A stretch of DNA of 64,000 nt from assembly GCF_002019635.1 (NCBI RefSeq), contig NZ_KV917371.1:806001-870000 (forward strand), written 5' to 3'. The position numbers and the translations under genes were made by a program. Of the stretch, positions 30,397-64,000 are shown piece by piece. The notes beneath the pieces are model-generated. The model did not search any database, had not been told where the DNA came from, and worked only from the letters and a program-made list of their open reading frames with translations. Within the stretch, counting starts at the first letter, position 1. The number at the start of each line of letters is the position of its first letter. Source of the DNA: Metabacillus halosaccharovorans. Its GTDB lineage: Bacteria > Bacillota > Bacilli > Bacillales > Bacillaceae.

Positions 30397-30972
30397 TTAG
30401 TTATTTTCACGATTTTCAAGAATAAAGAGTCGTTTATCATTCTTTGTAATACGATTGTTCACTTAATGGAATTCATCCTCTGTTTTTTTGTTCATCAGTT
30501 TTAATAGGGCAACAACGTCTTCCGTTTGTGACCGTTCTATTCGATTTACTGTTTCTTTAATATCTACTACATCTGATTTTAATTTTCCAGTGTCACTTTT
30601 AAGTAGTTTTACATCAGTCTTTAATTCTTGTGTATCGTTTTTTAATAACTGAACATTCACCTTAAGTTCTTTCGTATCTGTTTTTAGAAGCCGGACGTCT
30701 CCTTTTAGTTCTTTCGTGTCTGTTTTTAATAGCCGGACGTCTCCTTTTAGTTCTTTCGCGTCTGCTTTTAATAGCCGGACGTCTCCTTTTAGTTCTTTCG
30801 TGTCTGCTTTTAATAGCCGGACGTCTCCTCTTAGTTCTTTCGTGTCTGCTTTTAATAGCCGGACATCTCCTCTTAGTTCTTTCGTGTCTACTTTTAATAT
30901 CTTGACGTTAGATATTACTCCTTTCATATCCTTTTGTAGTTCTAATAAGATGTTCAGTATTTGTTTCTCCAT
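30397..30972 (-). pseudogene. Coiled-coil repeat protein with premature stop
   Basis: The open part (30463-30972) encodes 169 residues: a short N-terminus (MEKQILNILLELQKDMKG), about eight copies of a 14-residue repeat of the form LKxDTKELxGDVRL (two heptads each), and a tail KLMNKKTEDEFH. Immediately after the TAA the same frame continues with VNNRITKNDKRLFILENRENN before the next stop at 30397. That reads as the natural end of the protein, so the TAA at 30463-30465 is probably a nonsense mutation, although the shorter product may still be made. GAGGTG is 9 nt before the ATG. No signal or membrane segment; function unknown. Confidence 0.65.
30559..30897 (-). repeat. 42-bp coding minisatellite
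   Basis: Tandem 42-bp units (AGCCGGACGTCTCCTTTTAG on the plus strand recurs) encode 14-residue coiled-coil repeats. Five central copies are nearly identical at the DNA level while the outer ones have drifted, so copy number has probably changed recently. Confidence 0.9.
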
Positions 30973-31060
30973 AGTCTCTATCACCTCTCTTAGATTTTTC
31001 GCCTTAAGCACTTACCATTATTATGACATGTTTTCTCTCAGAAGAAAAATAGTCAAAATT

Positions 31061-31112: not shown

Positions 31113-32214
31113 TTATGAAAGCTTCGAACGTAAAAAGGCATCAATAAATGGATCCAGTTCTCCATCCATCACCGCATGAACGTTTCCAATTTCTGTGTTT
31201 GTACGGTGGTCTTTTACCATTGAGTATGGGTGGAAAACGTATGAACGGATTTGGCTTCCCCAGCCGATGTCCTTTTGTTCGCCACGGATTTCCGCAAGCT
31301 CTGCTTCCTGCTCTTCAATACGTTTTTGATAGAGTTTAGCTTGAAGCATTTTCATCGCACGTTCACGGTTTTTAATTTGTGAACGCTCTGTTTGACATGT
31401 TACAACGATGTTCGTTGGTGTATGTGTGATACGAACTGCAGAGTCAGTTGTATTGATGTGCTGTCCACCGGCTCCACTTGCACGGTACGTATCAATTTTC
31501 AAATCTTCTGTACGGATTTCAATGTCGATTTCTTCATTGAATTCAGGCATGACTTCACAAGAAACGAATGACGTATGACGACGACCTGATGAGTCGAATG
31601 GAGAAATACGGACTAAACGGTGTACCCCTTTTTCAGCTTTTAAATAGCCATATGCATTATGACCTTTTATTAACAGCGTCACACTCTTGATCCCCGCTTC
31701 GTCACCTGGTAGGTAATCAAGTGTTTCAACCTTAAAGCCTTTTTTCTCTGCCCAGCGAGTGTACATACGAAGAAGCATGGAGCCCCAGTCCTGTGACTCG
31801 GTTCCACCTGCACCCGGGTGAAGCTCAAGGATGGCGTTGTTTTTATCATGTTGTTCGCTTAGTAAGAGTTGAAGTTCAAAGTCGTTTAGTTGTGAAACAA
31901 GTTCTTTCATTTCGGACACAAGTTCACCTTGGAGATCTTCGTCTTCTTCTTCTTTTACAAGTTCATATGTTAGTTGAAGATTTTCGTAGGATTCGTTTAG
32001 GTTGTGGAATTGGTCCACCATTTCTTTTAGTGCGTTTGTTTCATTGATAATGGCTTGGGCTGCGTTTTGGCTGTCCCAGAAGTCCGGGGCTGTCATTTGT
32101 GCTTCTAGTTGTTGGATTCGTGCTTCTTTGATGTCGAGGTCAAAGAGACCCCCTAAAGTCCGCTAAACGTTTAGCTGTTTTTTCAAGTTCTTGTCTAATT
32201 TCTACTAGTTCCAT
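31113..32214 (-). CDS. prfB: Peptide chain release factor 2, with programmed +1 frameshift
   Basis: RF2 recognises UGA and UAA stop codons. It is encoded in two frames: 24 codons from ATG 32214 up to an in-frame TGA (32142-32140), then a +1 shift into the frame ending at 31113, giving 366 residues, the length of B. subtilis RF2. The shift site is the classical one: AGGGGG (32154-32149) placed just before CTT TGA C. The frameshift lets RF2 regulate itself. The main part shows the tripeptide anticodon SPF (RISPFDSSG) and the catalytic GGQ (GAGGQHIN). GGAGTG precedes the ATG. Confidence 0.97.
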
Positions 32215-38165: not shown

Positions 38166-38519
38166 CTATTTTCGTTTATCATAAAACATACCATCAGACA
38201 CCGATACATCTTGGTATGGATTGGAATACTGTTTAGTAGATACTTTTGTTTTTTTCAGATTTACCATATCCTGTTGAACTTGTGACTTCAATTCAATTAG
38301 CTTCTCTATTATTGTTTTATTCCATTTGGAAATTTGTTCACCTAGCTGTTTTTCTTTCTCATTTTTTGGTTTTTCACTTCTATCGATAAACTGTTGGCGT
38401 TCTTCAAGCAATGACGTAATTTGCTTAATTACGTCCTCTCTGTGGTCTGGATCTACTGGTTTTTCAACTAGGTTCAGTAGTTTTTCAGTAATTCTGTGTA
38501 TTTCAATAACAGAACTCAC
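38166..38519 (-). CDS. fliT: Flagellar export chaperone FliT-like
   Basis: This 117-residue, mostly helical, highly charged protein directly follows fliS, the place of fliT (yvyC-fliDST order) in B. subtilis. FliT chaperones the cap protein FliD. The gene starts with GTG at 38519, whose first base is the last base of the fliS stop codon (TAGTG), so translation is coupled. The longer frame beginning at 38579 lies inside fliS and is rejected. Sequence conservation in this family is low; the call rests on position, size and helicity. Confidence 0.82.
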   Translation of the reverse strand: MSSVIEIHRITEKLLNLVEKPVDPDHREDVIKQITSLLEERQQFIDRSEKPKNEKEKQLGEQISKWNKTIIEKLIELKSQVQQDMVNLKKTKVSTKQYSNPYQDVSVSDGMFYDKRK

Positions 38520-38920
38520 TAAGCCTGCCCGCCTTGTCCATGTTGTTTTTGACGATTCATTTGAATAACTTGTTTCCATGTGTCTCTAAATTCAATTGCA
38601 TAGTTCTCTACTTCTTTTAAAATAGATGGATCATTCTTAATATTTGCTTCTATTAATCGGTGATTCATATATTCATACATCACTTCAAATTTTTTAGAGA
38701 TTTCATAATCTTTATTTAAAGTAATCATTAGCTCTGTGATAATCTTTTGGGCTTTTTGAATGTTTGTATTTTTTTCTTGAATATTTGAATCTTCTATTGC
38801 TTTTGCTGCTTGTCCAATAAATTTGATACATCCGTTATAGAGCATTAGCGTAATTTCACCAGGTGTTGCTGTCGTAATTGCATTTTGTTGATAGGCTGAA
38901 TACGGATTATTGATTGCCAC
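38519..38920 (-). CDS. fliS: Flagellin chaperone FliS
   Basis: This 133-residue four-helix protein has the typical FliS start NPYSAYQQNAITTATPGEITLMLYNGCIKFI, followed by the YEYMNHRLIEANIKND helix and the FRDTWKQ segment. FliS binds the C-terminal D0 helix of flagellin in the cytosol and, with FliW and CsrA, links flagellin supply to translation. It lies between fliD and fliT. A paralogue is present at 59366. Confidence 0.96.
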   Translation of the reverse strand: MAINNPYSAYQQNAITTATPGEITLMLYNGCIKFIGQAAKAIEDSNIQEKNTNIQKAQKIITELMITLNKDYEISKKFEVMYEYMNHRLIEANIKNDPSILKEVENYAIEFRDTWKQVIQMNRQKQHGQGGQA

Positions 38921-38938: not shown

Positions 38939-40510
38939 CTAAGCAAATTGTTGCATTAAGTATGTTGATTGAGAATTAGCCTTTTGTATCGCTTGTTCCA
39001 TTGCTGTAAATTGATTCCAGTATCTATTTTCAATTTGAGTGAGACGATCTTGGAATCGATCAATTTGTGAATCTAAGCCAACAATATTGCGTCCAATTGA
39101 GAATTGCTGATTTGTTGAAGTCAGTTTCCCTGCTTTTTTCTCAATTCCCTCTACTGTATCACTAATGATATTTCGAAGTCGTTTTGTTAGTCCTAGTTCT
39201 GCCTGTACAGTACTATCTTTTGTAGTTGTTGTCCCATCTGTTGCAGTTGTTGTGATACGGGTAGCTCCACTAAACATTTGAAATACAGCCTGTGGATCTT
39301 TTTCAATTGCTTCCCTTAGTTTTGTTTCATCAATCGTTAGCTTTCCATTATCTCGATAATTATTTGTTGTTTTTATACCAATTTCCGCCAATTGATTATA
39401 ATCACTATTTGCTCCAGTACCTGTATACGCAGAATATAATGCAGTTCGCATCTTATTTAAAGAAGAAGCTAAAATCGAGTCATTTTTTAATAGACCACTT
39501 TTTGCTTTTTCTTCCCATAATTCAATTTGTTTCTCAGACATTGCCTCTTTTTCTTCATCTGAGAGTGGCTGATAACTTCGATAGCGTGTTTCACTTATTT
39601 CTCCGTTTATTTTTTCGATTAATTCATTATATTTGTCAACAAACTGGACTATTTTATCTACCATATTATCTGTATCACTAGAAACTTTTATGGTAGCAGC
39701 TTTACCATTAGTTACGTCATTTAGGGTGTATGTGACATCGTTAATCGTAAATGTGTTGCTAGAGCGTGTAATGTTTTCAAGGCCATTGAGGGTAAAGGCA
39801 GCATCATCACCAGCTGTTTTTGTAGCTTCAAGAGTATATGGAACGGTGTTATTAGTTGTATCCGAGAAGCCTAAGCTTGCAAATAACGTCTTGGCAGCTT
39901 CATTTTCTATAGTAATTGAGGATTTACTTCCGGTATCATTTTTAGTCATAACGACTTTACCATTTTCCGTAAATAAGTTAATCCCTAATTCCTTTTTACT
40001 TGACAACTGTTTCAAGACATCTTCCAGAGTAGATCCAGCTTTAATTGTTAATTCGATAACATCCGTTTTCGTACCGTCACTATTTGTTACCATTGATTGT
40101 GTACCATCACCATTTGTAGCCTTTAATTGAATAACAGTGTCTGACGCAAATGTGTTTTGATCATATGTTATTCCTGAGTTGGAAATCCAGTTTGTGGAAG
40201 AAGCTAATTTATTTACTACTATCGATGTATTAACATTTCCTGCATTCGTGCTTGCTGTCGCAGTAACCGCACTGGACATAGAACTTGTTACAGTCTTTTT
40301 TAAAAAATCCTTTTGTAGTGTCATATTGTCAAATATATAATCATCAAAATCACTTAAAAGAGTGTTCATGCTACGATAATCATCTCGTTGCCATTCAAGT
40401 AATTGCTTTTTTTGAGATAGTTTATCTAATGGAATTCTTTCAGCCTTCATTAAGTCACTGACTAATGTATCAATATCCATGCCACTAGCTAATCCACCAA
40501 TTCGAACCAT
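38939..40510 (-). CDS. fliD: Flagellar cap protein FliD
   Basis: This 523-residue hook-associated protein 2 caps the filament and folds incoming flagellin. The N-terminal FliD_N (MVRIGGLASGMDIDTLVSDLMKAERIPLD), a FliD_C domain from about 230 and a C-terminal coiled coil (IENRYWNQFTAMEQAIQKANSQSTYL) are typical. Length agrees with B. subtilis FliD (498). It is transcribed with flaG upstream (12 bp gap) and fliS-fliT downstream. Confidence 0.96.
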   Translation of the reverse strand: MVRIGGLASGMDIDTLVSDLMKAERIPLDKLSQKKQLLEWQRDDYRSMNTLLSDFDDYIFDNMTLQKDFLKKTVTSSMSSAVTATASTNAGNVNTSIVVNKLASSTNWISNSGITYDQNTFASDTVIQLKATNGDGTQSMVTNSDGTKTDVIELTIKAGSTLEDVLKQLSSKKELGINLFTENGKVVMTKNDTGSKSSITIENEAAKTLFASLGFSDTTNNTVPYTLEATKTAGDDAAFTLNGLENITRSSNTFTINDVTYTLNDVTNGKAATIKVSSDTDNMVDKIVQFVDKYNELIEKINGEISETRYRSYQPLSDEEKEAMSEKQIELWEEKAKSGLLKNDSILASSLNKMRTALYSAYTGTGANSDYNQLAEIGIKTTNNYRDNGKLTIDETKLREAIEKDPQAVFQMFSGATRITTTATDGTTTTKDSTVQAELGLTKRLRNIISDTVEGIEKKAGKLTSTNQQFSIGRNIVGLDSQIDRFQDRLTQIENRYWNQFTAMEQAIQKANSQSTYLMQQFA

Positions 40511-40522
40511 GCTTTTTCACCT

Positions 40523-40864
40523 CTATATCTTTTTATCAAACAAAATCCCCATAAACTCTGTCATTTCTGAATACATATCAAGAACCTTTTTTGAGGGTAT
40601 TTCTTTTATTACTTCATTTGTCTGATCATCGACAACTGTTACATAGTATTCATTTAGTTCTTCGTGAAGTTGAAATTTAATATGTGTATTTGTTGGTTGT
40701 AGAAAATCGTTTAATCCTTTAACTATTTTTTTCAGACCCTCTTCATCTTGTACCACATTTTTTTCTATTTCAGTTTTTGCTTCTTTATCTCTTTTTTCTG
40801 CGTTACGATATGTTTGTTCTAAGTTGTGAAGTGCTGGTTGTGAAGTAATTTTGTCGATAGACAT
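40523..40864 (-). CDS. flaG: Flagellar protein FlaG
   Basis: This 113-residue protein has the FlaG domain in its second half (IKFQLHEELNEYYVTVVDDQTNEVIKEIPSKKVLDMYSEM); the first half is charged and helical. FlaG influences filament length and is usually next to fliD. GGAG lies 8 nt before the ATG at 40864. A near-perfect sigma-D promoter is 36 nt upstream, so flaG heads the fliDST unit. Confidence 0.94.
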   Translation of the reverse strand: MSIDKITSQPALHNLEQTYRNAEKRDKEAKTEIEKNVVQDEEGLKKIVKGLNDFLQPTNTHIKFQLHEELNEYYVTVVDDQTNEVIKEIPSKKVLDMYSEMTEFMGILFDKKI

Positions 40865-40899
40865 GGAAAACACTCCTCTGAATTAGATATCTATCTTTA

Positions 40900-40926
40900 A
40901 TATCGGTTAATCCTAATAGATGTTTA
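40900..40926 (-). promoter_or_regulatory. Sigma-D promoter of flaG-fliDST
   Basis: On the minus strand TAAA (40923-40926), 15 bp, then ACCGATAT (40900-40907): 7 of 8 -10 bases with exact -35 and spacing. Confidence 0.9.
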
Positions 40927-40948: not shown

Positions 40949-43384
40949 CTATTTTAATAGCCCTAGAACTTGTTCCTGTGATTGTTTGAGGTGTACCGCC
41001 ATTGCCTGCTGTGCTTGAGTTAATATTTGTTCCTTTAAAAGACTCATGGCTTCCCTAGCCAAATCTGTATCTTGAATTCTACTCAATGATGCAACTGTAT
41101 TTTCTTCCATTACTGATAGATTTGTTGCAATATGATCTAATCGATTTTCAACTGCTCCAACATTACCTAGTTCCTGCAAAACAAAGTCCAGTGCATTATC
41201 AATGATCTTTAACCCACGTGCAGCATCTTCTTGAGTTCGTACACAAATAATATTTGTGTCTCTTAGTAAATTATCAAATGATGCAATTTCCACCTTGAAA
41301 TTTTGACCTGAGTTAGCTCCCACTTGGAACGTAAACTCATTCGGTTCATATCCGATAGCTTGTCTTACACGATAATCAACTGATAGCGTATGATTCCCGG
41401 CACCAAGAGTGATACTATCTTTATTTAATACTACTATACTATCTTGTAGCGAATACTGATTTGTCGAAAGCAGATTGCCATCTAAGGTAACCGCTAGTTG
41501 TGAAGGATCTACTTCTGCCCCTGTTAAACTATCACCTGTTTCATGGTCGCAATAATTATGAAAATAGTTATTTGGCATATGATCATTTAATGATATCTCT
41601 AATGAATCGAAGTATTGGACGGTTAACGATACTCCAGTTAGTGAATTCGTAATATCAGGACGGGCATTACCCACAATTTCTACCTGCTGTCCTTTAACTG
41701 TGTAACCATTTCCTGTAGGATCTTGAACTTTTAAAACTTCCTCTCCATTCATAATTACTTTATAAATGTAAGAGTTTTGAGGGATATGTTGAACTAAATC
41801 ATTAGCTGTTAACGAGTAAACTTGAAAATCTCCGGAGTTATCATCAAAATCAGGACGATAAGAACCATGTAAAGAAAGTCTATTAAAGTCTCTATCATAT
41901 GTGAAACCATTTTCAGAATCGTAGGGGACCTCGACGCCACTTTGATAGACTCTAATTGCTTTTGGTCCTGTTACACTAGCTAAACCGTAATCAAGTGTAT
42001 TTGAAGCAAGCTGAAAATCATACGTGTCATTCCCCCGACTCGAAGAACTACTTTCATAGACAAAACTTACTTTAACATCAGGATTGGATGTATTATTCGC
42101 TTCAGGACGTGCATCCCCGTACAGCTCTATACGGTTGGTTTGACTATTGTAGAAATATCCATTAGTTTTTGTATCATCATATTCAACATTAGCACCATCT
42201 ACTTCGACAAGAAATGTAATTGGTTCACCTGTTCCGTATGTTTCAGGAGTTTGTGATAAAGCAATCTCTACTTTTCCATCTTGATGATGAACGTCTGCTG
42301 TCGGGACAACCATCTGAACTAAGTAGGTATCATTTACATCAGGGCGACTTGTCCCATACAGCTCGATTGTATTTGTTGTTGAATTATATTGAAAACCATT
42401 AGTATTCGAGTATTCGATTTCCTCAGTAGAATTTCGATATACACGTATCGAATTAGGTGTCACAGTACTACCAAGGTTATAAACTTCTGGTACATTATTT
42501 AATCTAATACCATATACATCCTTTGAGGTGGATGTTGAATCATAAACATACTTAATCTTAACTTCTTCATTAGAAGCAATATCCGACCGGGCATCTCCAT
42601 AAAGACTGACTCTGCCATTTTCATACGTATACCCATTTGTTTTTGATGCATCGTATACTATTTCTTCTCCTCCAACATAAACACGTAATGAACGGTTTGT
42701 TGTAAGATCCGGATTTTCTAAATTATAGTTATCAATGTAGCTTGTTAAACTAAAGGTTTGAACTTGGTTTCGATTATCCACGTCATTGTAGTATTCTACT
42801 TCTACTTCTTCAAGATAGGAAGGGCGAAGATTGCCGTAAAACTCAATTTTTCCAGTAGCATCATCTACAAAAACACCATTTGTATTGTTAACATCTGTAG
42901 GTCTTGAAGAAAGCAACTGATCACGGGTAACCACAGTTCCTCCCACTTTTATACTTAGAGAACGTGGCCCCATTTCTCCATGCATATTATAAATTTCAGC
43001 TCCAAAAGGAACTGCTGTCGTAAATATCTCATTTTGAAATGAATCGGAGACATAGGAAAATTTATAATAATCTTGTGCATCATCGTCTGGCTCACTACCT
43101 ATAATTGCATCTCCAAAAAATTCAATTTCACCACCTGAAACCGTATAATATCCCCCTACAGGTTCCAAACCAGTCCCATCCCAATAGGTCAACTCTATTT
43201 CTCCATTATCATTAACCTTTTGAACCCTTAAGGAAGCATCACCAGTGTTCATCCTGTATAAATCTGGTGATGATGGAAGTGATAGTTTGTTCACATTATC
43301 TTCTCGAGGTACTTTAAGTACATCAGAAGATGGAATTAGCTCAATAGGTCCACTTGTTATAGTTTGGTTATTAAGATTAACCAT
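40949..43384 (-). CDS. Giant flagellin, C-terminal part (second frame)
   Basis: This 811-residue frame ends in a flagellin C-terminal D1/D0 domain (about 700-811: GAVENRLDHIATNLSVMEENTVASLSRIQDTDLAREAMSLLKEQIL...AQQAMAVHLKQSQEQVLGLLK) but has no N-terminal D0. Residues about 60-680 consist of seven or eight beta-rich modules of about 75-95 residues. Each contains a TNGY-Y-NRIELYGDARPD-like core followed by VKVSYVY. Its ATG lies in an 8-nt overlap with the upstream frame and has no good ribosome-binding site. It reads as the second half of one flagellin of about 1,150 residues, separated by a 7-bp duplication. If separately made, it would rely on translational coupling. Confidence 0.85.
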   Translation of the reverse strand: MVNLNNQTITSGPIELIPSSDVLKVPREDNVNKLSLPSSPDLYRMNTGDASLRVQKVNDNGEIELTYWDGTGLEPVGGYYTVSGGEIEFFGDAIIGSEPDDDAQDYYKFSYVSDSFQNEIFTTAVPFGAEIYNMHGEMGPRSLSIKVGGTVVTRDQLLSSRPTDVNNTNGVFVDDATGKIEFYGNLRPSYLEEVEVEYYNDVDNRNQVQTFSLTSYIDNYNLENPDLTTNRSLRVYVGGEEIVYDASKTNGYTYENGRVSLYGDARSDIASNEEVKIKYVYDSTSTSKDVYGIRLNNVPEVYNLGSTVTPNSIRVYRNSTEEIEYSNTNGFQYNSTTNTIELYGTSRPDVNDTYLVQMVVPTADVHHQDGKVEIALSQTPETYGTGEPITFLVEVDGANVEYDDTKTNGYFYNSQTNRIELYGDARPEANNTSNPDVKVSFVYESSSSSRGNDTYDFQLASNTLDYGLASVTGPKAIRVYQSGVEVPYDSENGFTYDRDFNRLSLHGSYRPDFDDNSGDFQVYSLTANDLVQHIPQNSYIYKVIMNGEEVLKVQDPTGNGYTVKGQQVEIVGNARPDITNSLTGVSLTVQYFDSLEISLNDHMPNNYFHNYCDHETGDSLTGAEVDPSQLAVTLDGNLLSTNQYSLQDSIVVLNKDSITLGAGNHTLSVDYRVRQAIGYEPNEFTFQVGANSGQNFKVEIASFDNLLRDTNIICVRTQEDAARGLKIIDNALDFVLQELGNVGAVENRLDHIATNLSVMEENTVASLSRIQDTDLAREAMSLLKEQILTQAQQAMAVHLKQSQEQVLGLLK

Positions 43385-44399
43385 TAACTTTTCTAATGTT
43401 ACCTAGGTTATCCGAATATACAAATGAAGTATTTCCAATTTCAACGATGGGTGAAAAACTATATCCTACACTACCATCTTGATAATTGTATTCATACGTT
43501 TGATAAGTACTCCAACTATAAGCAGAGGAAGATCGTCTCTCTAAAATAAGCTCTGTACCACTGTCTCTTAGCCTCATTAAAGAATTGGGAGCAACAGTTT
43601 CTGGAACAGCAGTGCTTGTCGCTTGATCTACACTTGAAACCTCCCCTCCATCCTTAGGAACAACATATTGGCCTCCGTCACGGGAAGAGGTAAATACGAT
43701 TGATTGTCCATCTTGGGTCCATCTTGGAAGATGATCGTTGATAGTAGTACCAACATAGGTAACAGGTTGAGCACCTCCTGAACTAGTGGATGGATTATAG
43801 GTATAATTCATGGAGCTTGTTTCAGTCTTAGGTAGAATATAATCGTATCCGGCAGTGTTCATCGCAGTGTCAATATACTGATATTGACCCACTTGAGATA
43901 ATTGTATTGTTTTTGATGCTGTACGATCTTCATAAAGGAATTCACCGTGGGTTTTATTCGATAGTAATTTCATTTTATTAAATTCGGTATGATGGACAAT
44001 TTCGTTTAAATTTTTCTTCAATTCATCTACTTCATTTTGTATAAGTAGTGTATCAGCTGTTGTCAAAGCATTTGGTTGATCTCGCAACTCTGTGTTGGTT
44101 CCATTCATGGCTTGGACAGTTAGTTCTCGGATACGATGAATGATATCCGTCATTTCTTGCATCGCTCCATCAGCTACCTGAACAAGAGACCCTGCATCTT
44201 GCGCATTTTGAATTGCTTGATTTTCGCCTCTTGATAATGCTAGTAGCTTTTGACTAATTGCTAGGCCTACAGCATCATTGGATGCAGAACGAATTTTTTG
44301 CCCTGTAGCTATTTTATCTATTGTTTTTTGTAAATTTGTTTGTGTTTTTTTCATTTTGTTGGTTAGTCTTAATGGTAGTCCGTTGGTGTTGATGTACAT
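43377..44399 (-). CDS. Giant flagellin, N-terminal part (first frame)
   Basis: This 340-residue frame starts with a flagellin N-terminal D0/D1 domain (about 1-150: LTNKMKKTQTNLQKTIDKIATGQKIRSASNDAVGLAISQKL ... IIHRIRELTVQAMNGT ... EFNKMKLL). It continues with a TolB-like segment (LPRWTQDGQSIVFTSSRDGGQY) and stops without a C-terminal D0. The last codons read GNIRKVNG-stop. Deleting one copy of the GTTAATG/GTTAATC tandem at the junction restores a frame reading GNIRKVNLNNQTI into the next gene. ATG 44399 has AAAAGGGG about 12-13 nt upstream, a long spacing. The domain order shows one flagellin gene cut in two. Confidence 0.85.
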   Translation of the reverse strand: MYINTNGLPLRLTNKMKKTQTNLQKTIDKIATGQKIRSASNDAVGLAISQKLLALSRGENQAIQNAQDAGSLVQVADGAMQEMTDIIHRIRELTVQAMNGTNTELRDQPNALTTADTLLIQNEVDELKKNLNEIVHHTEFNKMKLLSNKTHGEFLYEDRTASKTIQLSQVGQYQYIDTAMNTAGYDYILPKTETSSMNYTYNPSTSSGGAQPVTYVGTTINDHLPRWTQDGQSIVFTSSRDGGQYVVPKDGGEVSSVDQATSTAVPETVAPNSLMRLRDSGTELILERRSSSAYSWSTYQTYEYNYQDGSVGYSFSPIVEIGNTSFVYSDNLGNIRKVNG

Positions 44400-44620
44400 G
44401 GTGTGCTGACATCCCCTTTTATTACTTTTGGTTAAAATCCGCAAAATATTGACTTATTTTTTACTTTTTTGGCTAACAAAGGGTTGTTTGTTTGCTTACT
44501 TTTTACCATAAAACTTTTATGTCTTCCAAACTAATAATTGTTGGTTATCCTCAATCTTTCCCTTTACTCAGTAGCTATAACAAACATTTAAATACCTAAA
44601 ACCTAGACCCTTTCGAACAA
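44400..44620. other. Upstream region of giant flagellin
   Basis: AT-rich. A poor sigma-D-like match (GCGGATTT near 44439) is the only promoter candidate. Nothing else is recognisable. Confidence 0.3.
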
Positions 44621-45025
44621 AAGATATTGAACAAAAAATACATGAAAAGATAAATAAACACCCAATTATTGATTCACTGTTAGGAATATTAAATACTCAG
44701 CAACTTTTTTATTAACCTATCAATTGAAAAAAGAACTAAAATACCTTTTAAAATGTCAAAGAAATAAGCTTCTTATGAAATGCTAGGTTGAAATAAGGGC
44801 ACAACTGCTTTAATTACTACAGAACTGAGCATCGATATGTACCAATCTCCAACATCTTGCATCTGCACCTTGGGGAGAGTTTGTCTTCTGGAGATCAAGA
44901 AAGTACTAGGATAAGATAAAGCACTAGAACATCCACATATAAAGTCTGCGTTATGTGATGTTGCATTTGCTATTATAGAAGTAGATACAAAAAGAGGAAA
45001 GAAAAAAGCATTTGTTGCCACATGA
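44620..45025 (+). pseudogene. IS110-family transposase remnant
   Basis: Pieces of an IS110-type transposase can be read in order on the plus strand across several frameshifts and stops. First KDIEQKIHEKINKHPIIDSLL (helical region), then NKGTTALITTELSIDMYQSPTS (the IPGI-TTA-EIG-DM region), then LASAPWG (matching HLASWAG). Last is EHPHIKSALCDVAFAI followed by TKRGKKKAFVAT (the C-terminal NPHIKSAL ... RRGKKKA-VA motif). The N-terminal DEDD catalytic part is not seen. The element is dead and strongly decayed. It lies between the giant flagellin and the glycosyltransferase genes. Confidence 0.72.
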
Positions 45026-45286
45026 CATACTTAAATTTCTATTATTTTTCAAGGAAAACCTTAGCGGTATTCTCAGTGATTTTCATTATAGACAAGAAAG
45101 AAATTATACAAGAATACTCTACTTTCCTATCTTTTAAAGTTTAATATTATTATCATTAAATTTTTGTTGAAAATATCATAATTTCATTTTGTAAAAATCA
45201 AATAATATTAACCCTTTCAGTACAGTTAGAAATATGGAATATTATTTTAAGTATACTAGATTTCCCTATACTCAATTATTGATGTT

Positions 45287-45335
45287 TTAAAGGGAGTTTA
45301 TTCTACTAAATAAAGAGAAAATAAACTCCCTTTAA
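45287..45335 (-). terminator. Terminator of the glycosyltransferase operon
   Basis: TTAAAGGGAGTTTATT and AATAAACTCCCTTTAA form a perfect 16-bp stem directly after the GT4 stop codon. Confidence 0.92.
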
Positions 45336-47207
45336 TTAAGGAAGGTACATCTTACATAACGTTTTTATATCATCAAATGTTTCCCCATAATGTGTTGCAG
45401 AACCAACCTCTTGAGCTATTTTAAGTAATTCACTACTTAAATTTGATTGGCCTAGAATGATACAAACACGACCAAATAAATAGGAAATATCTGAGTAGGT
45501 AATATCCTGTTTAATTGCCTCATTAGCAATAGTTACTAATTCATCAATCCTATCTAATTCCAAAAGAGATAATATAAGCCATTTGGTGGCTATAAGTTTT
45601 TCTTCCTCTGTTAGAGTCGAAAATTTTTCTTTAGTCCATTCGATAATACCAAGATAATTCCTATTTTTATATAACTTTCTAATTTCCCCTAACCACTTGG
45701 AAAGAAAATACGATTCATTAGCATTTCCTATTTTAATTGGTAAAAACAACAGATCACTGTTCTGAAAAGGTAAAACTCCTCTTTTTAAAAGACGTTGTTC
45801 AGTCCTTATTATTGTATGATCTGGAACATCATTAGAATAAAGGACTTGTACACTAAAAGGAATATCTACTCCGATTGATATTATACGCTTAATTTGTTCA
45901 ATAGATTCATTATCTATTGTTTCTCCTTCAATTAAGTATAAACACCAGTCCTTATTTAATTTAAGTTGAACTTCGTTAATCATAATATATACTTGTTCAG
46001 AACTTAACCCTTTTGGCAGAACCTCAATGTGAAGAGATGTTTGTGAGAATAACTGAGAAACATTATTCCATTGTTCAATAGTTGCATATAGATACTGTTC
46101 CCAGTTCAAAATAATGCTTTCCCAATTAAATTTCTCGGAAGTTACATAACCATTTTCCACCAATTCCATTCGTTTTTCATAATCATCAATTAACAGCATT
46201 ATCTGCTCAGCTAAACTTTTCGGGTCCCCTATTCGGCCGAATAAACAATTATATCCATCTATACCATATTCTTGTACCCCTTTATTGTTTGTCGATATAA
46301 CAGCACATCCACAAGTCATAGCCTCTAGCGGTGGCAATGGAAATGATTCGTAATAAGAACCCGAAACAAAAATATCACAAGACCTATAAATATCACCTAA
46401 ATCTATTTGGCTTGGATTCACTACCAAAGTTCCGTCAAAATGTGATTGTGGGGCTTGTTGAGTTACCCATACTTCATCAAAGTCTCTTCCTGATTTGCGA
46501 ACAACTTTTAGTGCTTCTCTTATATCCTTTATACCCTTAAAGGCATTTTCCTCTTGTCCTACAAATAAGATTCTGGGTTTTCCTTTTAATTGATTTGTTC
46601 TCGGATAAAAATACTTGTTATCTAAAGCATTGTGTAAAACTTGTCCCTTTCTTCCAAAATTCTTTTCAAGAGTATCTACCAAAATCTTTGAAACTCCAAC
46701 TACCGGAACCGGAAAATTCCAAATTTCTTTAAAATATGATTGAACATTTTCACCGAGCTTATCATATTCATAAATGTAAGTATCACCTTGTTCAAATAAT
46801 ATTACAGGTGCCTTTTGCATTGAGTAACACTCAGGTAATTGGTCTGCTACAGTGCAAACAATAATATCAACATCTGGCATCATTTGCATAAATCCTACAT
46901 GCAGTGGAACCTTAATGAAATTAGCCTTTACATCTCGCCAATCAGGCTTATCATCTCTACAAAGTATCACTACATCGTGACCTCTATCAACAAGATGATT
47001 TGTATGTTCTAAAAGAATTTTAACTCCACCACAGACACGTGCATGGTTCATTACATAGACAATTTTAAGTTTTGTTTGGTTGTTCTTTGGTGAAAATAAC
47101 ACATCAATTCTTTTAGAAAGTTCGCTTAAGTAATGCTTGTTTCTATTATTAACTATTTTTTGAATATATTTTATATAATGGTACCTTAATTCATTCATGA
47201 TATTCAC
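45336..47207 (-). CDS. GT4-family glycosyltransferase with C-terminal extension
   Basis: This 623-residue protein has a GT-B glycosyltransferase (about 45-400): the acceptor domain begins KIVYVMNHARVCGGVKILLEHTNHL and the donor domain shows VGVSKILVDTLE, RILFVGQEENAFKGIKDI and the nucleotide-sugar motif SYYESFPLPPLEAMTCGCAVIST with E-x7-E spacing. Residues about 410-623 form an unassigned alpha-helical, TPR-like extension. Position in the flagellar locus next to flagellin genes suggests flagellin glycosylation (inference). AAGGAG lies 9 nt before the GTG start. Confidence 0.85.
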   Translation of the reverse strand: MNIMNELRYHYIKYIQKIVNNRNKHYLSELSKRIDVLFSPKNNQTKLKIVYVMNHARVCGGVKILLEHTNHLVDRGHDVVILCRDDKPDWRDVKANFIKVPLHVGFMQMMPDVDIIVCTVADQLPECYSMQKAPVILFEQGDTYIYEYDKLGENVQSYFKEIWNFPVPVVGVSKILVDTLEKNFGRKGQVLHNALDNKYFYPRTNQLKGKPRILFVGQEENAFKGIKDIREALKVVRKSGRDFDEVWVTQQAPQSHFDGTLVVNPSQIDLGDIYRSCDIFVSGSYYESFPLPPLEAMTCGCAVISTNNKGVQEYGIDGYNCLFGRIGDPKSLAEQIMLLIDDYEKRMELVENGYVTSEKFNWESIILNWEQYLYATIEQWNNVSQLFSQTSLHIEVLPKGLSSEQVYIMINEVQLKLNKDWCLYLIEGETIDNESIEQIKRIISIGVDIPFSVQVLYSNDVPDHTIIRTEQRLLKRGVLPFQNSDLLFLPIKIGNANESYFLSKWLGEIRKLYKNRNYLGIIEWTKEKFSTLTEEEKLIATKWLILSLLELDRIDELVTIANEAIKQDITYSDISYLFGRVCIILGQSNLSSELLKIAQEVGSATHYGETFDDIKTLCKMYLP

Positions 47208-47235
47208 AAGGTTAATCTCCTTATATCACATTTAA

Positions 47236-48297
47236 CTAAATTAGTTTAAGTGTCTTATCTAATTGTTCCTTAGCAAATTTAACAACTATATGACTTAGCC
47301 TATTTTTATTATCTAAGACCTTTGAGTACATTTCAATCGCATGGAAATAATCCCTATTAGTTTGAGAAATTAGACCAATCCAAAAGTAACTCTCCGGACA
47401 CAGAGACTTATCAATACTTTCTAAAATTGTAAGGCTTTCATCAAGATTACCCTCATCAATTATATTAAATGCTGTCATCAATTGTTCATATGAAAGAATT
47501 ATTTCATTAATTCTTTCATCTATACGGGTTAAATCAGTGCTATTTGATGCCTTTGTTGATAAGAAAGGAAATAGCTTTCTCATCTTTAACAAATTAAGTT
47601 TCTCTATTCCTTTGTCTACTGAATCCATTTGATTTTGTCCCTCAACCTGAGCATTTGTACAAACATAAACTATTACAAAGCCGTTTTCACCACGAACCAT
47701 GTTATTTGGACACTGAGTAAAATTATCGACCACTGAAAATCCACTTTCTGATAAAGCATTCTTGAGTTGTTGTGGTGTGTAGTGTCGATAATGATGTGGA
47801 TTCTTTCCGTCCTTATAAAATGGGTTTTGGTCACATGGTATTACATCCTCATTCGGTGAAGAAATTAATAGTATTCCTCCAGGTTTCAGAAGGCTATTTA
47901 TTTTTTTAAGGAAATTTCCATCTTCACTTAAATGTTCAATTGTTTCAAAGCAAGTTATAACATCAAATTCTTTTATTGGCAATTTTGTATCGAAATCCCC
48001 TAGAAGATCAACATTTATATATTGATTTTTGGGAGTAGAGAAATATGTTTTTGCCCAATCTAATGCGTGGTCGTTAACATCTAAACCAACAACAAGCTCA
48101 CATCCTGAATTAGCAGCCATATAATATGAGCCATATCCGGCACCAGAGGCAGCGTCTAATACCCTGTCTCCACTTTTAATATAATTTATCGCAAGTTGAT
48201 AACGTTCTTTATGATCATGTGATGCTTCATTAAAAAATTTAGGATATATTCTTTCTCCTCCTTGTAATTCCTTATAATTCCCCTCTAAAATACCCAA
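47236..48297 (-). CDS. SAM-dependent methyltransferase with C-terminal helical domain
   Basis: This protein of about 353 residues has a class I methyltransferase domain (about 25-210): SAM motif I VLDAASGAGYGSYYMA, acidic loop VVGLDVN, then FDVITCFETIEHLSEDGNFLKKINSLLKPGG. The remaining 140 residues are helical and TPR-like (YFWIGLISQTNRDYFHAIEMYSKVLDN). It probably methylates a sugar made by its neighbours, as seen in other flagellin-glycan loci (inference). The ATG at 48306 abuts AAAGG, so TTG at 48297 with 9-nt spacing is the better start. Confidence 0.82.
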   Translation of the reverse strand: MGILEGNYKELQGGERIYPKFFNEASHDHKERYQLAINYIKSGDRVLDAASGAGYGSYYMAANSGCELVVGLDVNDHALDWAKTYFSTPKNQYINVDLLGDFDTKLPIKEFDVITCFETIEHLSEDGNFLKKINSLLKPGGILLISSPNEDVIPCDQNPFYKDGKNPHHYRHYTPQQLKNALSESGFSVVDNFTQCPNNMVRGENGFVIVYVCTNAQVEGQNQMDSVDKGIEKLNLLKMRKLFPFLSTKASNSTDLTRIDERINEIILSYEQLMTAFNIIDEGNLDESLTILESIDKSLCPESYFWIGLISQTNRDYFHAIEMYSKVLDNKNRLSHIVVKFAKEQLDKTLKLI

Positions 48298-48405
48298 AAA
48301 TATCATCCTTTCAAATAAAAATCCTAATACATTAGCTCATATAATAAGTAATCTTCACGATAATTACCCTTTGATTTTTATAATTTCATTTTAATTATGG
48401 ATCTT

Positions 48406-49497
48406 TTAATTAATATTTTTTTTAACAAAATTATTTTTAGTTAATTGTCCAACACGAGCTTTAGCTTGTGAATAACCATAATTAGATGATAAATAATAAT
48501 ATTCGATAGCCCTCTCCATATCACCGAACACCTCATAATATACACCTAAGTTATAGGCAGGAAGATATGTGCTTGTACCCTGTAAGTATTGAATATGTGG
48601 TTTGACGTTCAACTTTAAACAAGATAAAAAACTTTTTTCAATTTCATCAATGTATCTCATCGAATTACTTATATCTGTGAGACAATAGTTTAGATAAAAT
48701 AACCCTTTCGAAAAATGGAAATCTGTTACATTAAACAGTAACTGTTCATTATCTCTAATAATTCCTACTACTTCCTCTTTTACATATTCTTTACCACAAT
48801 TAATTATTTCTATTACCAATCGACTATAGTAAGCTGATTTCTTATCTGTCAGATTATAGGATTTAACTAATAATTTTAATGCTTTCTCAAATTCATTATT
48901 TATTCTTAATTCTTTTCCTAACTGAAAAAGAAAGTAAGAGTCATTAGCATTTTTATTTAACTCTTTCTGTAATAAGGGGATATTTCTTTTACACTTTTCA
49001 GTTGAGTCAATATACCCACTATGCTTAGCAATAATATTCATATTAAATCTCGGGATATTACTGTCAAGTTGTTCATGAACGCTACCTACATATTTAATGT
49101 CTCTTGGAAAGAATCTAGATACAAACTGATTTGACTGGAATATTTGACCATCTTTTATAAATTCACTACTGATTAATATTCTACCTATAGAATTTTTTTT
49201 CATTATTATAGAAAAATCATCTATTGTTCCTTCAATAATATGTTCATCAGCATCTAACATTAGTATATAATTCCCTGAAGTTTTGCTAATGGCAAAGTTG
49301 CGTGCAGCTGAAAAATCATCACACCATTCAAAATAAAATAAATTTACACCTTGATACTGTTTAATAATACTAACCGTATTATCAGTAGAACCAGTATCTA
49401 CTATTACTATTTCATCAACAAAATTTTCTACACTATCTAGACATTTTTTTATATGATTTTCCTCATTTTTAACAATTAATGCCAAGGAAATCTTCAA
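48406..49497 (-). CDS. GT2-family glycosyltransferase with TPR repeats
   Basis: This 363-residue protein has an N-terminal GT-A domain (about 1-170): MKISLALIVKNEENHIKKCLDSV, VDTGSTDNT and the DxD-like LMLDADEHI. TPR-like helices follow to the end (DSYFLFQLGKELRINNEFEKALKLL; GVYYEVFGDMERAIEYYYLSSNYG). It is a shorter paralogue of the next gene upstream. Such GT2-TPR proteins next to flagellin genes are candidates for O-glycosylating filament protein. The start is TTG at 49497 after AGGTGGG. GC content is lower than in the core flagellar genes, in keeping with acquisition. Confidence 0.87.
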   Translation of the reverse strand: MKISLALIVKNEENHIKKCLDSVENFVDEIVIVDTGSTDNTVSIIKQYQGVNLFYFEWCDDFSAARNFAISKTSGNYILMLDADEHIIEGTIDDFSIIMKKNSIGRILISSEFIKDGQIFQSNQFVSRFFPRDIKYVGSVHEQLDSNIPRFNMNIIAKHSGYIDSTEKCKRNIPLLQKELNKNANDSYFLFQLGKELRINNEFEKALKLLVKSYNLTDKKSAYYSRLVIEIINCGKEYVKEEVVGIIRDNEQLLFNVTDFHFSKGLFYLNYCLTDISNSMRYIDEIEKSFLSCLKLNVKPHIQYLQGTSTYLPAYNLGVYYEVFGDMERAIEYYYLSSNYGYSQAKARVGQLTKNNFVKKNIN

Positions 49498-49532
49498 TAA
49501 AAACCCACCTTTAATTAAATTGAACAGTTGAT

Positions 49533-51446
49533 CTAATGCTTAATACTTTCTAAATAGTAACTTACTTTAAATATACTTTTAGCTTTCTCTAAAGTAGGTA
49601 TATATTGGTGTGTATCTACATTTTCTAAAATATATGCATAAAATCTAAAATCATTTTCATATATTGATATGCCATATTGAGCAACTTCAATAGCATATTC
49701 TTTATTATTTGTTTCCAGAAAGCTATTGATAATATTAATAAAATCCTGTTCTATGAAGTTATTCCATTCTCCAGTATCATATAATTGTAAAGCCTCAACT
49801 CTAAAACCCTTAGCAAATAATACACTAGCTACTCTAGTCGTAACCTCACTATCAATATTCTCAACATTCTTTAATAATAAAGTACATAATGAATACATTT
49901 TATAGTTCAACAAGATTTCAAAAGAAGTTATAAAGAGATTTTTATCAAGTAATTCCAAGTTAGTATTACCATTCTTAATATCTATTAATGACTTTAGAGC
50001 ATCTTCAATATCAAGTTCCTTCATTAATTTTTTAAAATATTCATCTTCTGTAAGAATATCCCTTAACAGAAAAAGATCTACAACATTAATCCAATTTGAT
50101 TTAATAAGATCCTTTGCAACTGAAACTTTGAGAATATCATGCAAATCTTCAAACTGTCCTTTTCCTTCAATTGCTATTTTTTTTAGTATACCCACTTTAT
50201 ATAATAAACCATCTTCTTCTTTTAATTGCTTTAATAAGCATAAAGCCAATTCTATATTTCCAATATCATAACAAGCTCTTACATAACTTGTTATATTTTT
50301 ATTATTTATTAAGTTTTTACTTTTAAGAAAATCTGCTATTTCATTTACTGTATGGAACCTATTGAGTATATATATGCTTTTTTTTATAGCATCCTCATTA
50401 TATTTATTTATATTTAACACACTTATAAAGTTAAAGATTGATTCTTGGTAAGATTCCTCATATAGAAAGATATCTCCTAACCTACTATAAGGTTTTTGGT
50501 CCCTAAAATCTGGTCTAAATAAAATATGATTGTACTTTTCATAATTGTTTATTAAATCCGAAAACAAAAGCTTTGCATCTTTCATTTGACCCCTTAAATA
50601 GAATATTTCACCTTTTAAATATGGAAATTCAGGAGAATCCCCATAGATTTTTTCAGCATCATGTATTACATTTAATGCATCATTGTACCTCTTTAATTGT
50701 ATTAAACATATAATTATTTGTACTAAGGTTGTAGAAACCCAAGCTAGCCTAAAATCAGATTTTAGCTTATATGCTTCGATGTAGCATTCTAACGCTTTAT
50801 TAATTTCTCCGCCAGAAGAATACTCATTTCCAAGGTTAAAATAGTCAAATGCATTTTTATTTTTCATTTCATTTTCTAGAAGTTTCTTATTTCTATTACT
50901 TTTGTCTTTTTCATTAACAGTTTGTTTTAAATATCCAGAATGAAAAATTAGCAGGTTGGAATTGTTATATTTTATCTCCTGACCAGTCTGATTTCTAAAC
51001 TGTTCATGGATTTTACGATAATAACTTATCTCCCCGTTATTTTTATATATTCTATCATGGAAATTTTGAACAAGAACCTCTCCTAAATTCCCTGTAAAAT
51101 TTAAAATTTTAGCATAATATGCATCATAAATCCCATTATCTTTCTTTAGCTCTTTTATAAAAACCTCAAAATTTTCTTCATCAACATACTCATCAGCATC
51201 TAAAACTAAAATCCATTTTCCAGTTGCTTTAGAAGCAGCATAATTACGGGCAGCTGAAAAATCATGAACCCATTCAAAATCATATATATTAGTTGTATAT
51301 TTAGATACTAATTCTTTTGTATTATCTGTAGAACCAGTATCTACAACTATAATTTCATCTACGAGATTTTTGATTGAACTTAAACAACGGTCTATTACTT
51401 TCTCTTCATTTTTAACTATCATACACAGGGAGATGAATTTATCCAT
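49533..51446 (-). CDS. GT2-family glycosyltransferase with long TPR region
   Basis: This 637-residue protein has an N-terminal GT2 domain (about 1-190: FISLCMIVKNEEKVIDRCLSS, VDTGSTDNTKEL, WILVLDADEYVDEE). About 430 residues of helical repeats follow, several clearly TPR-like (NAFDYFNLGNEYSSGGEINKALECYIEAY). The repeats could dock flagellin or its chaperones. It is the first gene after hag, separated by a strong terminator, so a separate promoter or read-through is needed. GGAGG precedes the ATG. Confidence 0.87.
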   Translation of the reverse strand: MDKFISLCMIVKNEEKVIDRCLSSIKNLVDEIIVVDTGSTDNTKELVSKYTTNIYDFEWVHDFSAARNYAASKATGKWILVLDADEYVDEENFEVFIKELKKDNGIYDAYYAKILNFTGNLGEVLVQNFHDRIYKNNGEISYYRKIHEQFRNQTGQEIKYNNSNLLIFHSGYLKQTVNEKDKSNRNKKLLENEMKNKNAFDYFNLGNEYSSGGEINKALECYIEAYKLKSDFRLAWVSTTLVQIIICLIQLKRYNDALNVIHDAEKIYGDSPEFPYLKGEIFYLRGQMKDAKLLFSDLINNYEKYNHILFRPDFRDQKPYSRLGDIFLYEESYQESIFNFISVLNINKYNEDAIKKSIYILNRFHTVNEIADFLKSKNLINNKNITSYVRACYDIGNIELALCLLKQLKEEDGLLYKVGILKKIAIEGKGQFEDLHDILKVSVAKDLIKSNWINVVDLFLLRDILTEDEYFKKLMKELDIEDALKSLIDIKNGNTNLELLDKNLFITSFEILLNYKMYSLCTLLLKNVENIDSEVTTRVASVLFAKGFRVEALQLYDTGEWNNFIEQDFINIINSFLETNNKEYAIEVAQYGISIYENDFRFYAYILENVDTHQYIPTLEKAKSIFKVSYYLESIKH

Positions 51447-51480
51447 TAGTATTCCTCCAAATTTTAATGATTCTAATAAA

Positions 51481-51513
51481 AATATCGTACTTATGTAAAA
51501 TAAGTACGATATT
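51481..51513 (-). terminator. Terminator of hag
   Basis: AATATCGTACTTAT and ATAAGTACGATATT form a perfect 14-bp stem with a 5-nt loop, followed by TTTTA on the minus strand. Confidence 0.95.
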
Positions 51514-51538
51514 CCTTTAGAACCATTACGGACTTTAA

Positions 51539-52354
51539 TTAACGTAGTAATTGTAAAACACCTTGTGGTTGTTGGTTTGCTTGTGCAAGCATTGCTTGAG
51601 CAGCTTGAGATAGAATTGAATTCTTAGTTTGAGACATCATTTCACTTGCCATATCAACATCACGTACACGAGACTCTGCTGCAGTTAAGTTTTCTTGAGA
51701 AGCACCTAAGTTGTTAATTGTGTGCTCTAAACGGTTTTGAACGGCACCTAGTACAGAACGTTGTTTTGATACTTTGTCGATCGCAGCATCGATTTGACTA
51801 ATAGAAGAACTTGCCGCAGCATTAGTACTAACAGAAACTAGTGCTGAGCTTAAGCTTAATCCAGTAGTGTTCATTGCAGAAATTCCGATATTTATAACTT
51901 GTCCTTCATTTGCTCCAATTTGAAGAGTACCAGAGAAACTTCCACCTAAAAGGTTTTGAGTATTGAATTCAGTAGTACCAGCAATTCTATCAACTTCTGA
52001 CATTAACTGATTTAACTCATCTTGGATTGCACTACGGTCTTCAGTAACGTTAGTATCGTTACCACCTTGAACTGCAAGTTCACGCATACGTTGAAGGATT
52101 GCATGTGTTTCGTTTAATGCACCCTCAGCAGTTTGAATTAAAGAGATACCATCTTGAGAGTTCTTTCCAGCCATTTCTAAACCGCGGATTTGTCCACGCA
52201 TTTTTTCAGAAATTGCAAGACCTGCAGCATCGTCACCAGCACGGTTGATACGAAGACCTGAAGATAGTTTTTCCATTGATTTTGCTTGTCCGTTGTTAGC
52301 AGATGATAACTGACGGTAAGTGTTTAAAGCTGCGATATTGTGATTAATTCTCAT
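51539..52354 (-). CDS. hag: Flagellin Hag
   Basis: This 271-residue major filament subunit is close to the minimal flagellin size (B. subtilis Hag is 304). The N-terminal D0/D1 (MRINHNIAALNTYRQLSSANNGQAKSMEKLSSGLRINRAGDDAAGLAISEKM) and C-terminal D1/D0 (VQNRLEHTINNLGASQENLTAAESRVRDVDMASEMM ... LAQANQQPQGVLQLLR) are intact, with almost no variable domain between about 165 and 190. A frame from 52384 adds ten residues but overlaps the ribosome-binding site AGGGAGG; ATG 52354 is right. It lies after csrA-fliW, with a sigma-D promoter and an upstream 31-codon ORF. Confidence 0.97.
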   Translation of the reverse strand: MRINHNIAALNTYRQLSSANNGQAKSMEKLSSGLRINRAGDDAAGLAISEKMRGQIRGLEMAGKNSQDGISLIQTAEGALNETHAILQRMRELAVQGGNDTNVTEDRSAIQDELNQLMSEVDRIAGTTEFNTQNLLGGSFSGTLQIGANEGQVINIGISAMNTTGLSLSSALVSVSTNAAASSSISQIDAAIDKVSKQRSVLGAVQNRLEHTINNLGASQENLTAAESRVRDVDMASEMMSQTKNSILSQAAQAMLAQANQQPQGVLQLLR

Positions 52355-52355
52355 T

Positions 52356-52451
52356 TTAATTTTCCTCCCTGAATGTAAGTTCATCCACTTCCTTGTAGAT
52401 GAAAGTTAAGTTTTTGTAGTTAGAGAGGAAGCACTTTTTGTCGGCCGCCAT
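52356..52451 (-). CDS. 31-codon leader ORF coupled to hag
   Basis: This ORF has a strong ribosome-binding site (AGGGAGGAA, 52458-52466, 6 nt before the ATG). It encodes a charged 31-residue peptide (MAADKKCFLSNYKNL...) and ends with TAA one base before the hag ATG. The hag site AGGGAGGAA lies in its final codons. The two initiation regions share an identical 9-mer 96 nt apart. It could be a true leader peptide giving translational coupling, or the first AGGGAGGA may be an extra CsrA site and the ORF incidental. Confidence 0.5.
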   Translation of the reverse strand: MAADKKCFLSNYKNLTFIYKEVDELTFREEN

Positions 52452-56922: not shown

Positions 56923-56991
56923 ACGACTCCCTCTTTCTATCATATTTTCTCTAACCTTTATATCGGCCATTCTTTATTATTATTTAGACCA

Positions 56992-59362: not shown

Positions 59363-59365
59363 AAA

Positions 59366-59821
59366 CTATTTCCCTTCCTCCACAGTATTCATGTCTCTTT
59401 CATATACCATTACATTTTTTTCATAAGCATTTGCTTTTTTGAAAAGTTGTTGTTGTATTTGAGTCGATTTATTATTTTTCATTGCTGTCTGCCAAGCTCC
59501 GGAGATATCCTCTAAAATAGATAGAACTTCTTTTAAAGGCTTAATATCTTTCTTAATATTAGCCTTAATCACGAGGTCTGCCATATAGTTATAGAGAGCA
59601 TCAAGCTGATCGGCAATTATTCCTGCTTCGTAATTTATCCCCACACCCAAACGTTCTAATATATCGTTCACTTTTTTTAGTTTTCCATTTGCCTCTATTA
59701 GTTTAGATGCTTCAATATCTTGTATTGCTTGTTTTGTATTATCTATTAATGCTTCATACAATAATGAAGTAATTTCTTGAGAAGATTTCTGGTAAATGAT
59801 TTCTTTTGTTAAAAAATCCAT
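59366..59821 (-). CDS. FliS-family chaperone paralogue
   Basis: This 151-residue four-helix protein resembles FliS (YQKSSQEITSLLYEALIDNTKQAIQDIEASKLIEANGKLKKVNDILERLG ... LDALYNYMADLVIKANIKKD ... ISGAWQTAMK) but is distant from the main FliS at 38519. Tight coupling to the second flagellin suggests a dedicated chaperone for that subunit (inference). GGGAGG precedes the ATG. Confidence 0.85.
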   Translation of the reverse strand: MDFLTKEIIYQKSSQEITSLLYEALIDNTKQAIQDIEASKLIEANGKLKKVNDILERLGVGINYEAGIIADQLDALYNYMADLVIKANIKKDIKPLKEVLSILEDISGAWQTAMKNNKSTQIQQQLFKKANAYEKNVMVYERDMNTVEEGK

Positions 59822-59842: not shown

Positions 59843-59868
59843 TTATCGGAATATCTAGTCAACTTTTA
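59843..59868 (-). promoter_or_regulatory. Sigma-D promoter of fliS2-flagellin 2
   Basis: On the minus strand TAAA (59865-59868), 14 bp, then TCCGATAA (59843-59850), 6 of 8 -10 matches. It overlaps the stop codon of the preceding gene. Confidence 0.72.
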
Positions 59869-63413: not shown

Positions 63414-63471
63414 TGTTATTTCTCCTATCGATTCGTTTTCTACTTATTATATCGGCTAGGATTTCTTCTTT

Positions 63472-64000
63472 TTAACTTCTAATTAATGTTAAAGAAGAGA
63501 TGGATGTTGCACCAGAGTCTCTTAGACGTTTGGCTGCGTGTCTTAGTGTGGTTCCTGTTGTATAAATGTCATCGATTAATAAAATGTTTTTCCCTTCTAT
63601 TATACTATGGTCGATAATAGAAAACACGTTTGAAGAAGTTAGTCGTTCATGACGGGATTTTTTGGATTGTTTTTCATGATGGGTTCGCTCGAGGACGTCC
63701 AACTGTGGGAGAGGAAGAAAGTCTGCTAAGAGTTTTGCTTGGTTAAAGCCGCGTTCGTAGAGCCGTTCAGGACTTAGTGGGATTGGGATAGTTGCATCGA
63801 ACTTTATCTTCTTGAAGTTTGTTTTGTAGCTTGTTTTGAGGTCTTTTTGGAAAACAGCTGCCAGGGCTGCATCCCCGCGGAATTTAAATGTTGAGAGAAT
63901 GTCCTTCATTGCGTCATTGTATTCATAGACAGATACATTACGCTCTAGAACCCCTTTCCATTTAGGGTCATTTTCCCAAGATTGGCAGTCTGAGCAATAA
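63472..64000 (-). CDS. comFC: ComFC competence protein, partial
   Basis: This phosphoribosyltransferase-fold protein is needed for DNA uptake during competence. The visible part (176 residues, N-terminus beyond the window) begins in a zinc-finger region (YCSDCQSW), continues PIPLSPERLYERGFNQAKLLA and ends with the PRPP loop ILLIDDIYTTGTTLRHAA. An internal ATG at 63909 would truncate it, so the frame is taken to the window edge. Its neighbours yvyF-flgM follow in the usual order. Confidence 0.95.
   Translation of the reverse strand, partial: YCSDCQSWENDPKWKGVLERNVSVYEYNDAMKDILSTFKFRGDAALAAVFQKDLKTSYKTNFKKIKFDATIPIPLSPERLYERGFNQAKLLADFLPLPQLDVLERTHHEKQSKKSRHERLTSSNVFSIIDHSIIEGKNILLIDDIYTTGTTLRHAAKRLRDSGATSISSLTLIRS

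What the first reader, a model, noticed from the sequence alone, without database searches (positions are those of the whole stretch)
40949..44399. Giant modular flagellin split by a 7-bp tandem duplication
Two overlapping frames carry the two halves of one flagellin: D0/D1-N in the first (43377-44399), D0/D1-C in the second (40949-43384). At the junction the sequence reads GTTAATG GTTAATC. Removing one 7-mer gives ...GNIRKVNLNNQTI..., a smooth continuation and a single protein of about 1,150 residues. The duplication also creates the overlapping ATG of the second frame. This could be a phase-variable switch (slippage of a 7-bp repeat), a recent loss-of-function, or a two-piece flagellin made by stop-start coupling. 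Split filament subunits would be new to me.
Basis: partly seen in the sequence, partly recalled or inferred. Interest (0 to 1): 0.82.

Follow-up and report, generated by a model that had tools for sequence, protein, structure and literature searches.

The report
Giant flagellin gene broken by frameshift
A very large flagellar-filament gene is cut in two by a single extra base while most relatives that carry it keep it whole, so this looks like an ordinary recent gene breakage (or a sequence error) and not a new two-part flagellin or an on/off switch.

Summary
The two overlapping frames are real: Flagellin_N plus PD40 at 43377-44399 and Flagellin_C at 40949-43384, minus strand. They are two parts of one giant flagellin gene. 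A congener, G002, has it as one 1149-aa frame (83% and 87% identical to the two parts) before flaG-fliD-fliS.

The claimed 7-bp duplication is not supported. Over about 3,450 nt, window and G002 differ by one gap of one base, at the junction; the repeat-like letters are family coding sequence. The lesion is a one-base frameshift.

No switch-like tract is visible there. Of 8 other carriers found as DNA, 7 have one frame; the eighth (G267) keeps only a C-terminal remnant. None is split at this junction. The break falls inside a predicted propeller-like domain. Both parts still show purifying selection (dN/dS 0.12), so the break is recent or a sequence error; 1 of 119 comparable genes is frame-split. 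Reads would decide.

The patchy family of propeller-bearing giant flagellins is the more interesting part.

The parts
43377..44399 (-). First frame: N-terminal part of the giant flagellin (340 aa; D0/D1-N, PD40 motif), ending inside the propeller-like domain
   Evidence: ORF (listed there from an upstream TTG at 44444); Flagellin_N and PD40 above Pfam cut-offs; 83% identical to residues 1-339 of the G002 protein
40949..43384 (-). Second frame: C-terminal part of the giant flagellin (811 aa; repeat region, D1-C/D0-C)
   Evidence: ORF; Flagellin_C; 87% identical to the G002 protein from residue 340 on
43375..43388 (-). Junction: frame break, one base longer than in the intact congener; the stop of frame 1 overlaps the ATG of frame 2
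   Evidence: Sequence; single one-base gap in about 3,450 columns against G002; family alignment
40523..40873 (-). flaG, followed by fliD (38939-40510) and fliS (38519-38920): flagellar genes downstream, conserved beside the giant gene in G002, G136 and G208
   Evidence: FlaG by Pfam; neighbourhood comparison (fliD and fliS named from order and by eye)
40901..40926 (-). Sigma-D-like promoter of flaG-fliD-fliS, inside the gap after the giant gene
   Evidence: Pattern match; 0 of 100 shuffles as good in the 88-nt upstream stretch

Best explanation
A giant flagellin gene of an existing family has been broken by one inserted base about 30% of the way in. The first frame stops inside the propeller-like outer domain; the remainder survives only as a second, probably poorly translated frame. 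Shown: the two frames, the one-base difference from an intact congener, the lack of any other carrier split at this point, and the position inside a predicted domain. Inferred: the N piece cannot be built in (it lacks the C-terminal D1/D0 helices), the C piece is not exported (it lacks the N-terminal region; recalled flagellin biology), and the filament is made from the shorter flagellins of the same locus (281 aa at 51539-52384, 604 aa at 57548-59362). The break is recent.
For: Intact single frame in the congener, same neighbourhood. One gap of one base. 40 full-length relatives and 7 of 8 other DNA carriers uninterrupted. Loss also seen independently: G267 keeps only a 231-aa C-terminal remnant, and the gene is patchy (2 of 21 genomes of the genus). 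Break inside a confidently predicted domain. Two complete shorter flagellins nearby.
Against: No sign of decay besides the one base: dN/dS 0.12 in both parts and only a slight excess of derived residues (11 v 9 and 23 v 15 against G002). This fits a recent event but equally a sequence error or a still useful gene. Reads and other strains of the species were not available.
Confidence: 0.63

Rival explanations
1. Assembly or base-calling error: the living strain has an intact giant flagellin and the extra base exists only in the record.
For: One-base length change; no other sign of decay; one frame-split in 119 comparable genes (about 45,000 aa) is a number a good assembly could still show as an error.
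Against: The assembly is otherwise clean in that comparison: 0 further splits in 119 genes (195 of 314 ORFs had no match of 65% or more and were not tested). The site is not a long homopolymer (GG).
Confidence: 0.27
2. Phase-variable or mixed population: the site flips between whole and broken states by slippage.
For: A repeat-like hexamer pair at the site; flagellin and surface genes are common targets of phase variation in other bacteria (listing only).
Against: The change is one base, the tract is GG, the repeat is imperfect, and G002 lacks it.
Confidence: 0.05
3. Two-piece flagellin: stop-start coupling gives two chains that assemble together.
For: Overlapping stop and ATG; both parts keep low dN/dS.
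Against: No other carrier found is split there; 7 partial protein records start or end elsewhere (positions 218, 275-823, 327, 383-939, 387, 628, 776 of P0002 against 339). The break divides a predicted domain.
Confidence: 0.03
4. Programmed +1 frameshifting restores one long protein.
For: The two frames overlap and a +1 step would join them.
Against: Relatives need no shift; I recognise no known +1 slip site before the stop (recalled, by eye).
Confidence: 0.02

Closest known systems
About 1,150-aa flagellins of Bacillaceae and some other Firmicutes, e.g. records named for Metabacillus fastidiosus, Falsibacillus albus, Cytobacillus suaedae, Ornithinibacillus contaminans, Heliorestis convoluta
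   Same: Same length, same flagellin ends, same mid-region over the whole length (40 full-length proteins, 36-69% identical to P0002)
   Different: Theirs are one frame; the window's is broken
Giant flagellins (Thomson et al. 2018, PMC6248924; passages seen)
   Same: Flagellin over 1,000 aa with a very large central insert; Firmicutes are named among the carriers
   Different: The studied ones (Bermanella, Oleibacter) have other inserts (DE/DX regions); no frameshift is discussed in the passages seen
Flagellinolysin (NF033876)
   Same: Flagellin with an extra domain in the variable region
   Different: P0002 scores 38.6 bits against a cut-off of 205, best stretch in the flagellin C-terminal end
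TolB / WD40 beta-propellers
   Same: PD40 motif; structural neighbours of the domain are propellers as far as I recognise them
   Different: Only a short propeller-like segment inside a flagellin; scores are weak

Membership tests
Flagellin (filament subunit) | Flagellin_N and Flagellin_C ends in one chain | tested here: not met
   Both ends are present but in two frames; met in G002 and in the 40 full-length relatives
Giant flagellin | More than 1,000 aa in one chain | tested here: not met
   340 and 811 aa here; 1149 aa in G002. The gene belongs to the family by sequence, the product as recorded does not
Slippage-type phase-variable gene | Repeat tract whose length change switches the frame | tested here: not met
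   Site has GG and an imperfect hexamer pair; congener differs by one base and lacks the repeat
Slippage-type phase-variable gene | Variation between cells of one strain | not testable with these tools
   No reads available
Beta-propeller domain | PD40 motif and bladed fold | tested here: inconclusive

The most novel reading that the evidence does not exclude
The strain's population is mixed at this site, some cells with the whole giant flagellin and some with the broken one, so that filaments with and without the large propeller-bearing outer layer coexist and the repeat-like coding stretch makes the loss frequent.
Probability: 0.05. Interest if true: 0.6.

Novelty: new member of a known kind. 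Interest (0 to 1): 0.24.

Why it matters
A split filament subunit would have been new; the evidence points to a frameshifted copy of a gene that is whole in relatives. What remains of use is a patchy family of giant flagellins with a propeller-like outer segment (2 of 21 genomes of the genus; 6 of 397 sampled from the order, one of them a remnant), for which two paper searches listed no paper on it by title or abstract. It also shows how a short coding repeat at a frame break can look like a switch.

Tried and rejected
7-bp duplication: rejected on the alignments with G002 and the family.

Promoter loss as independent proof of decay: four relatives have a sigma-D-like site (0-1 mismatches, 0 of 100 shuffles as good: G136, G208, G265, G127), and the window's giant gene has none in 936 nt (best 3 mismatches). 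But O. contaminans is marginal (7 of 100), the intact G002 has none of quality at standard spacing in 400 nt (2 mismatches, 37 of 100; one CCGATA at a 12-nt spacing), and the window's own hag reaches only 2 mismatches (32 of 100). I do not use it as evidence.

Faster evolution of the window copy: derived residues 11 v 9 (N) and 23 v 15 (C) against G002, P0002 having 5 and 7; no clear excess over G002.

'All relatives are intact': I had counted G267 as an ordinary weak match. On checking its 231-aa frame carries this family's C-terminal signature letters and no full gene stands around it, so it is a remnant; the report now says 7 of 8. That reading of L101 is by eye.

Partial protein records as recurrent design: seven exist but at different places, several on short contigs and perhaps simply cut.

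Foldseek's top match for the whole model, 9au6 (Geovibrio flagellin, E 3.7e-21), has rmsd 30.6 and TM 0.22-0.31; I take it as a shared flagellin core only. The repeat region was not folded alone, so nothing is claimed on its fold. A self-BLASTP of the C part printed no internal pair at E 1e-3, although relatives show shifted self-like matches to P0002.

Scans: the first genome-contig scan, with the N part, confirmed nothing; the second, with the mid-region alignment, gave one locus. The class sample gave only the window's own genome (1 of 398).

Literature: listings for giant flagellin (6 papers), large flagellins with other terms, two-piece or split flagellin (1 unrelated paper) showed no split filament subunit; PMC7018530 passages hold no 'frameshift' or 'pseudogene'.

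The first attempt at filing this report had broken fields and was returned; this is the mended version.

Full report
What is there. On the minus strand the window holds two overlapping frames, 43377-44399 (340 aa) and 40949-43384 (811 aa). The first has Flagellin_N and a PD40 motif, the second Flagellin_C. Downstream lie flaG, fliD, fliS and a possible fliT; upstream lie what look by eye like glycosyltransferase and methyltransferase genes and a 281-aa hag. The genome has 4 contigs and is 100% complete by the tool's estimate.

One gene, whole in most carriers. G002, of the same genus, has a single frame of 1149 aa here, 82.6% identical over the N part and 86.9% over the C part. Of 50 protein hits to the C part, 40 are full-length with both flagellin ends, 7 are partial, 1 is the window's own and 2 match only in the flagellin ends. 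By DNA the 701-aa mid-region was found in 2 of 21 genomes of the genus, 2 of 80 of the family, 6 of 397 sampled from the order, 1 of 398 sampled from the class, the window's own, and 2 of 29 and 1 of 17 in two other families; these samples overlap and include the window's own genome in the first four. Other carriers found as DNA number 8: G002, G136, G208, G265, G127, G824, G267 and O. contaminans. Seven have one frame (open frames 1131-1174 aa; ORFs). G267 has only a 231-aa frame with the family's C-terminal letters, cut at both ends: a remnant, so the gene has been lost elsewhere too, at another place.

The lesion. BLASTN over 3,449 columns and a global alignment each show one gap of one base between window and G002, at the junction. 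The repeat-like stretch codes for part of a blade-like strand; 39 of 40 full-length relatives have no gap there and one has a two-residue gap. A seven-base event would not fit. The window has 29 places where a 6-mer recurs at period 7 and 6 perfect 7-mer tandems.

Real or error? Of 314 G002 ORFs of at least 100 aa, 119 have a match of 65% or more in the 464-kb stretch of G000, and only this one is frame-split; in reverse, 118 of 369 have such a match and 1 is split, a different gene (the G002 stretch holds 2,500 N). The assembly is thus clean, but a single error in that amount of sequence cannot be excluded. dN/dS is 0.120 and 0.119 in the two parts, a little below the other two flagellins compared (0.137 and 0.213) and above FliD (0.084). 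The window copy has a slight excess of derived residues. So the break is recent, or is not in the living strain.

Phase variation. The site offers GG and an imperfect hexamer pair, and G002 lacks the repeat. Known slippage loci use longer tracts (general knowledge; one search was seen as a listing only). Population variation cannot be tested without reads.

Side result. The intact protein is a giant flagellin with a PD40/TolB-type propeller-like segment and six matches to a repeat motif in its C part. Giant flagellins are known, Firmicutes included (PMC6248924, passages). The gene stands at the edge of a variable gene block: DNA similarity between G000 and G002 stops at its start codon. Searches for flagellin with PD40 and with beta-propeller listed nothing on this family by title or abstract; other wording was not tried.

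Verdict. Interest low for the split, moderate for the family.

Noticed in passing
window 57548-59821, minus strand: A 604-aa flagellin with a FliS-like gene (33% identical to FliS over 108 aa) directly upstream: a second flagellin and chaperone pair, also present in G002.
   Followed up: no
window 40901-40926, 56961-56986, 59844-59868, 63450-63474 (minus strand); 3432-3455, 38182-38206, 41332-41357 (plus strand): Seven sigma-D-like pattern matches against 0.91 expected; some lie upstream of flagellar genes, one (41332-41357) inside the giant flagellin gene on the other strand.
   Followed up: partly
window 44400-51538: Variable block of glycosyltransferase-like and methyltransferase-like genes between hag and the giant flagellin; G002 has a different, longer set there.
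   Followed up: partly
window 43377-44399 and relatives: PD40/TolB-like propeller-like segment inside a flagellin, conserved across the family.
   Followed up: partly
L101 1321-2016, minus strand (G267): Remnant of the same giant flagellin, 231 aa, cut at both ends, between unrelated genes.
   Followed up: partly
window 30463-31011, minus strand: ORF of tandem 'LKADTKELRGDVRLL'-type coiled repeats.
   Followed up: no
window 31113-32096, minus strand: Release-factor-2-like ORF starting at MTAPDFWD; the usual programmed frameshift should lie just upstream (recalled).
   Followed up: no
G002 stretch: G002 has a frame-split counterpart of a 795-aa G000 ORF (73% and 69% identical parts).
   Followed up: no
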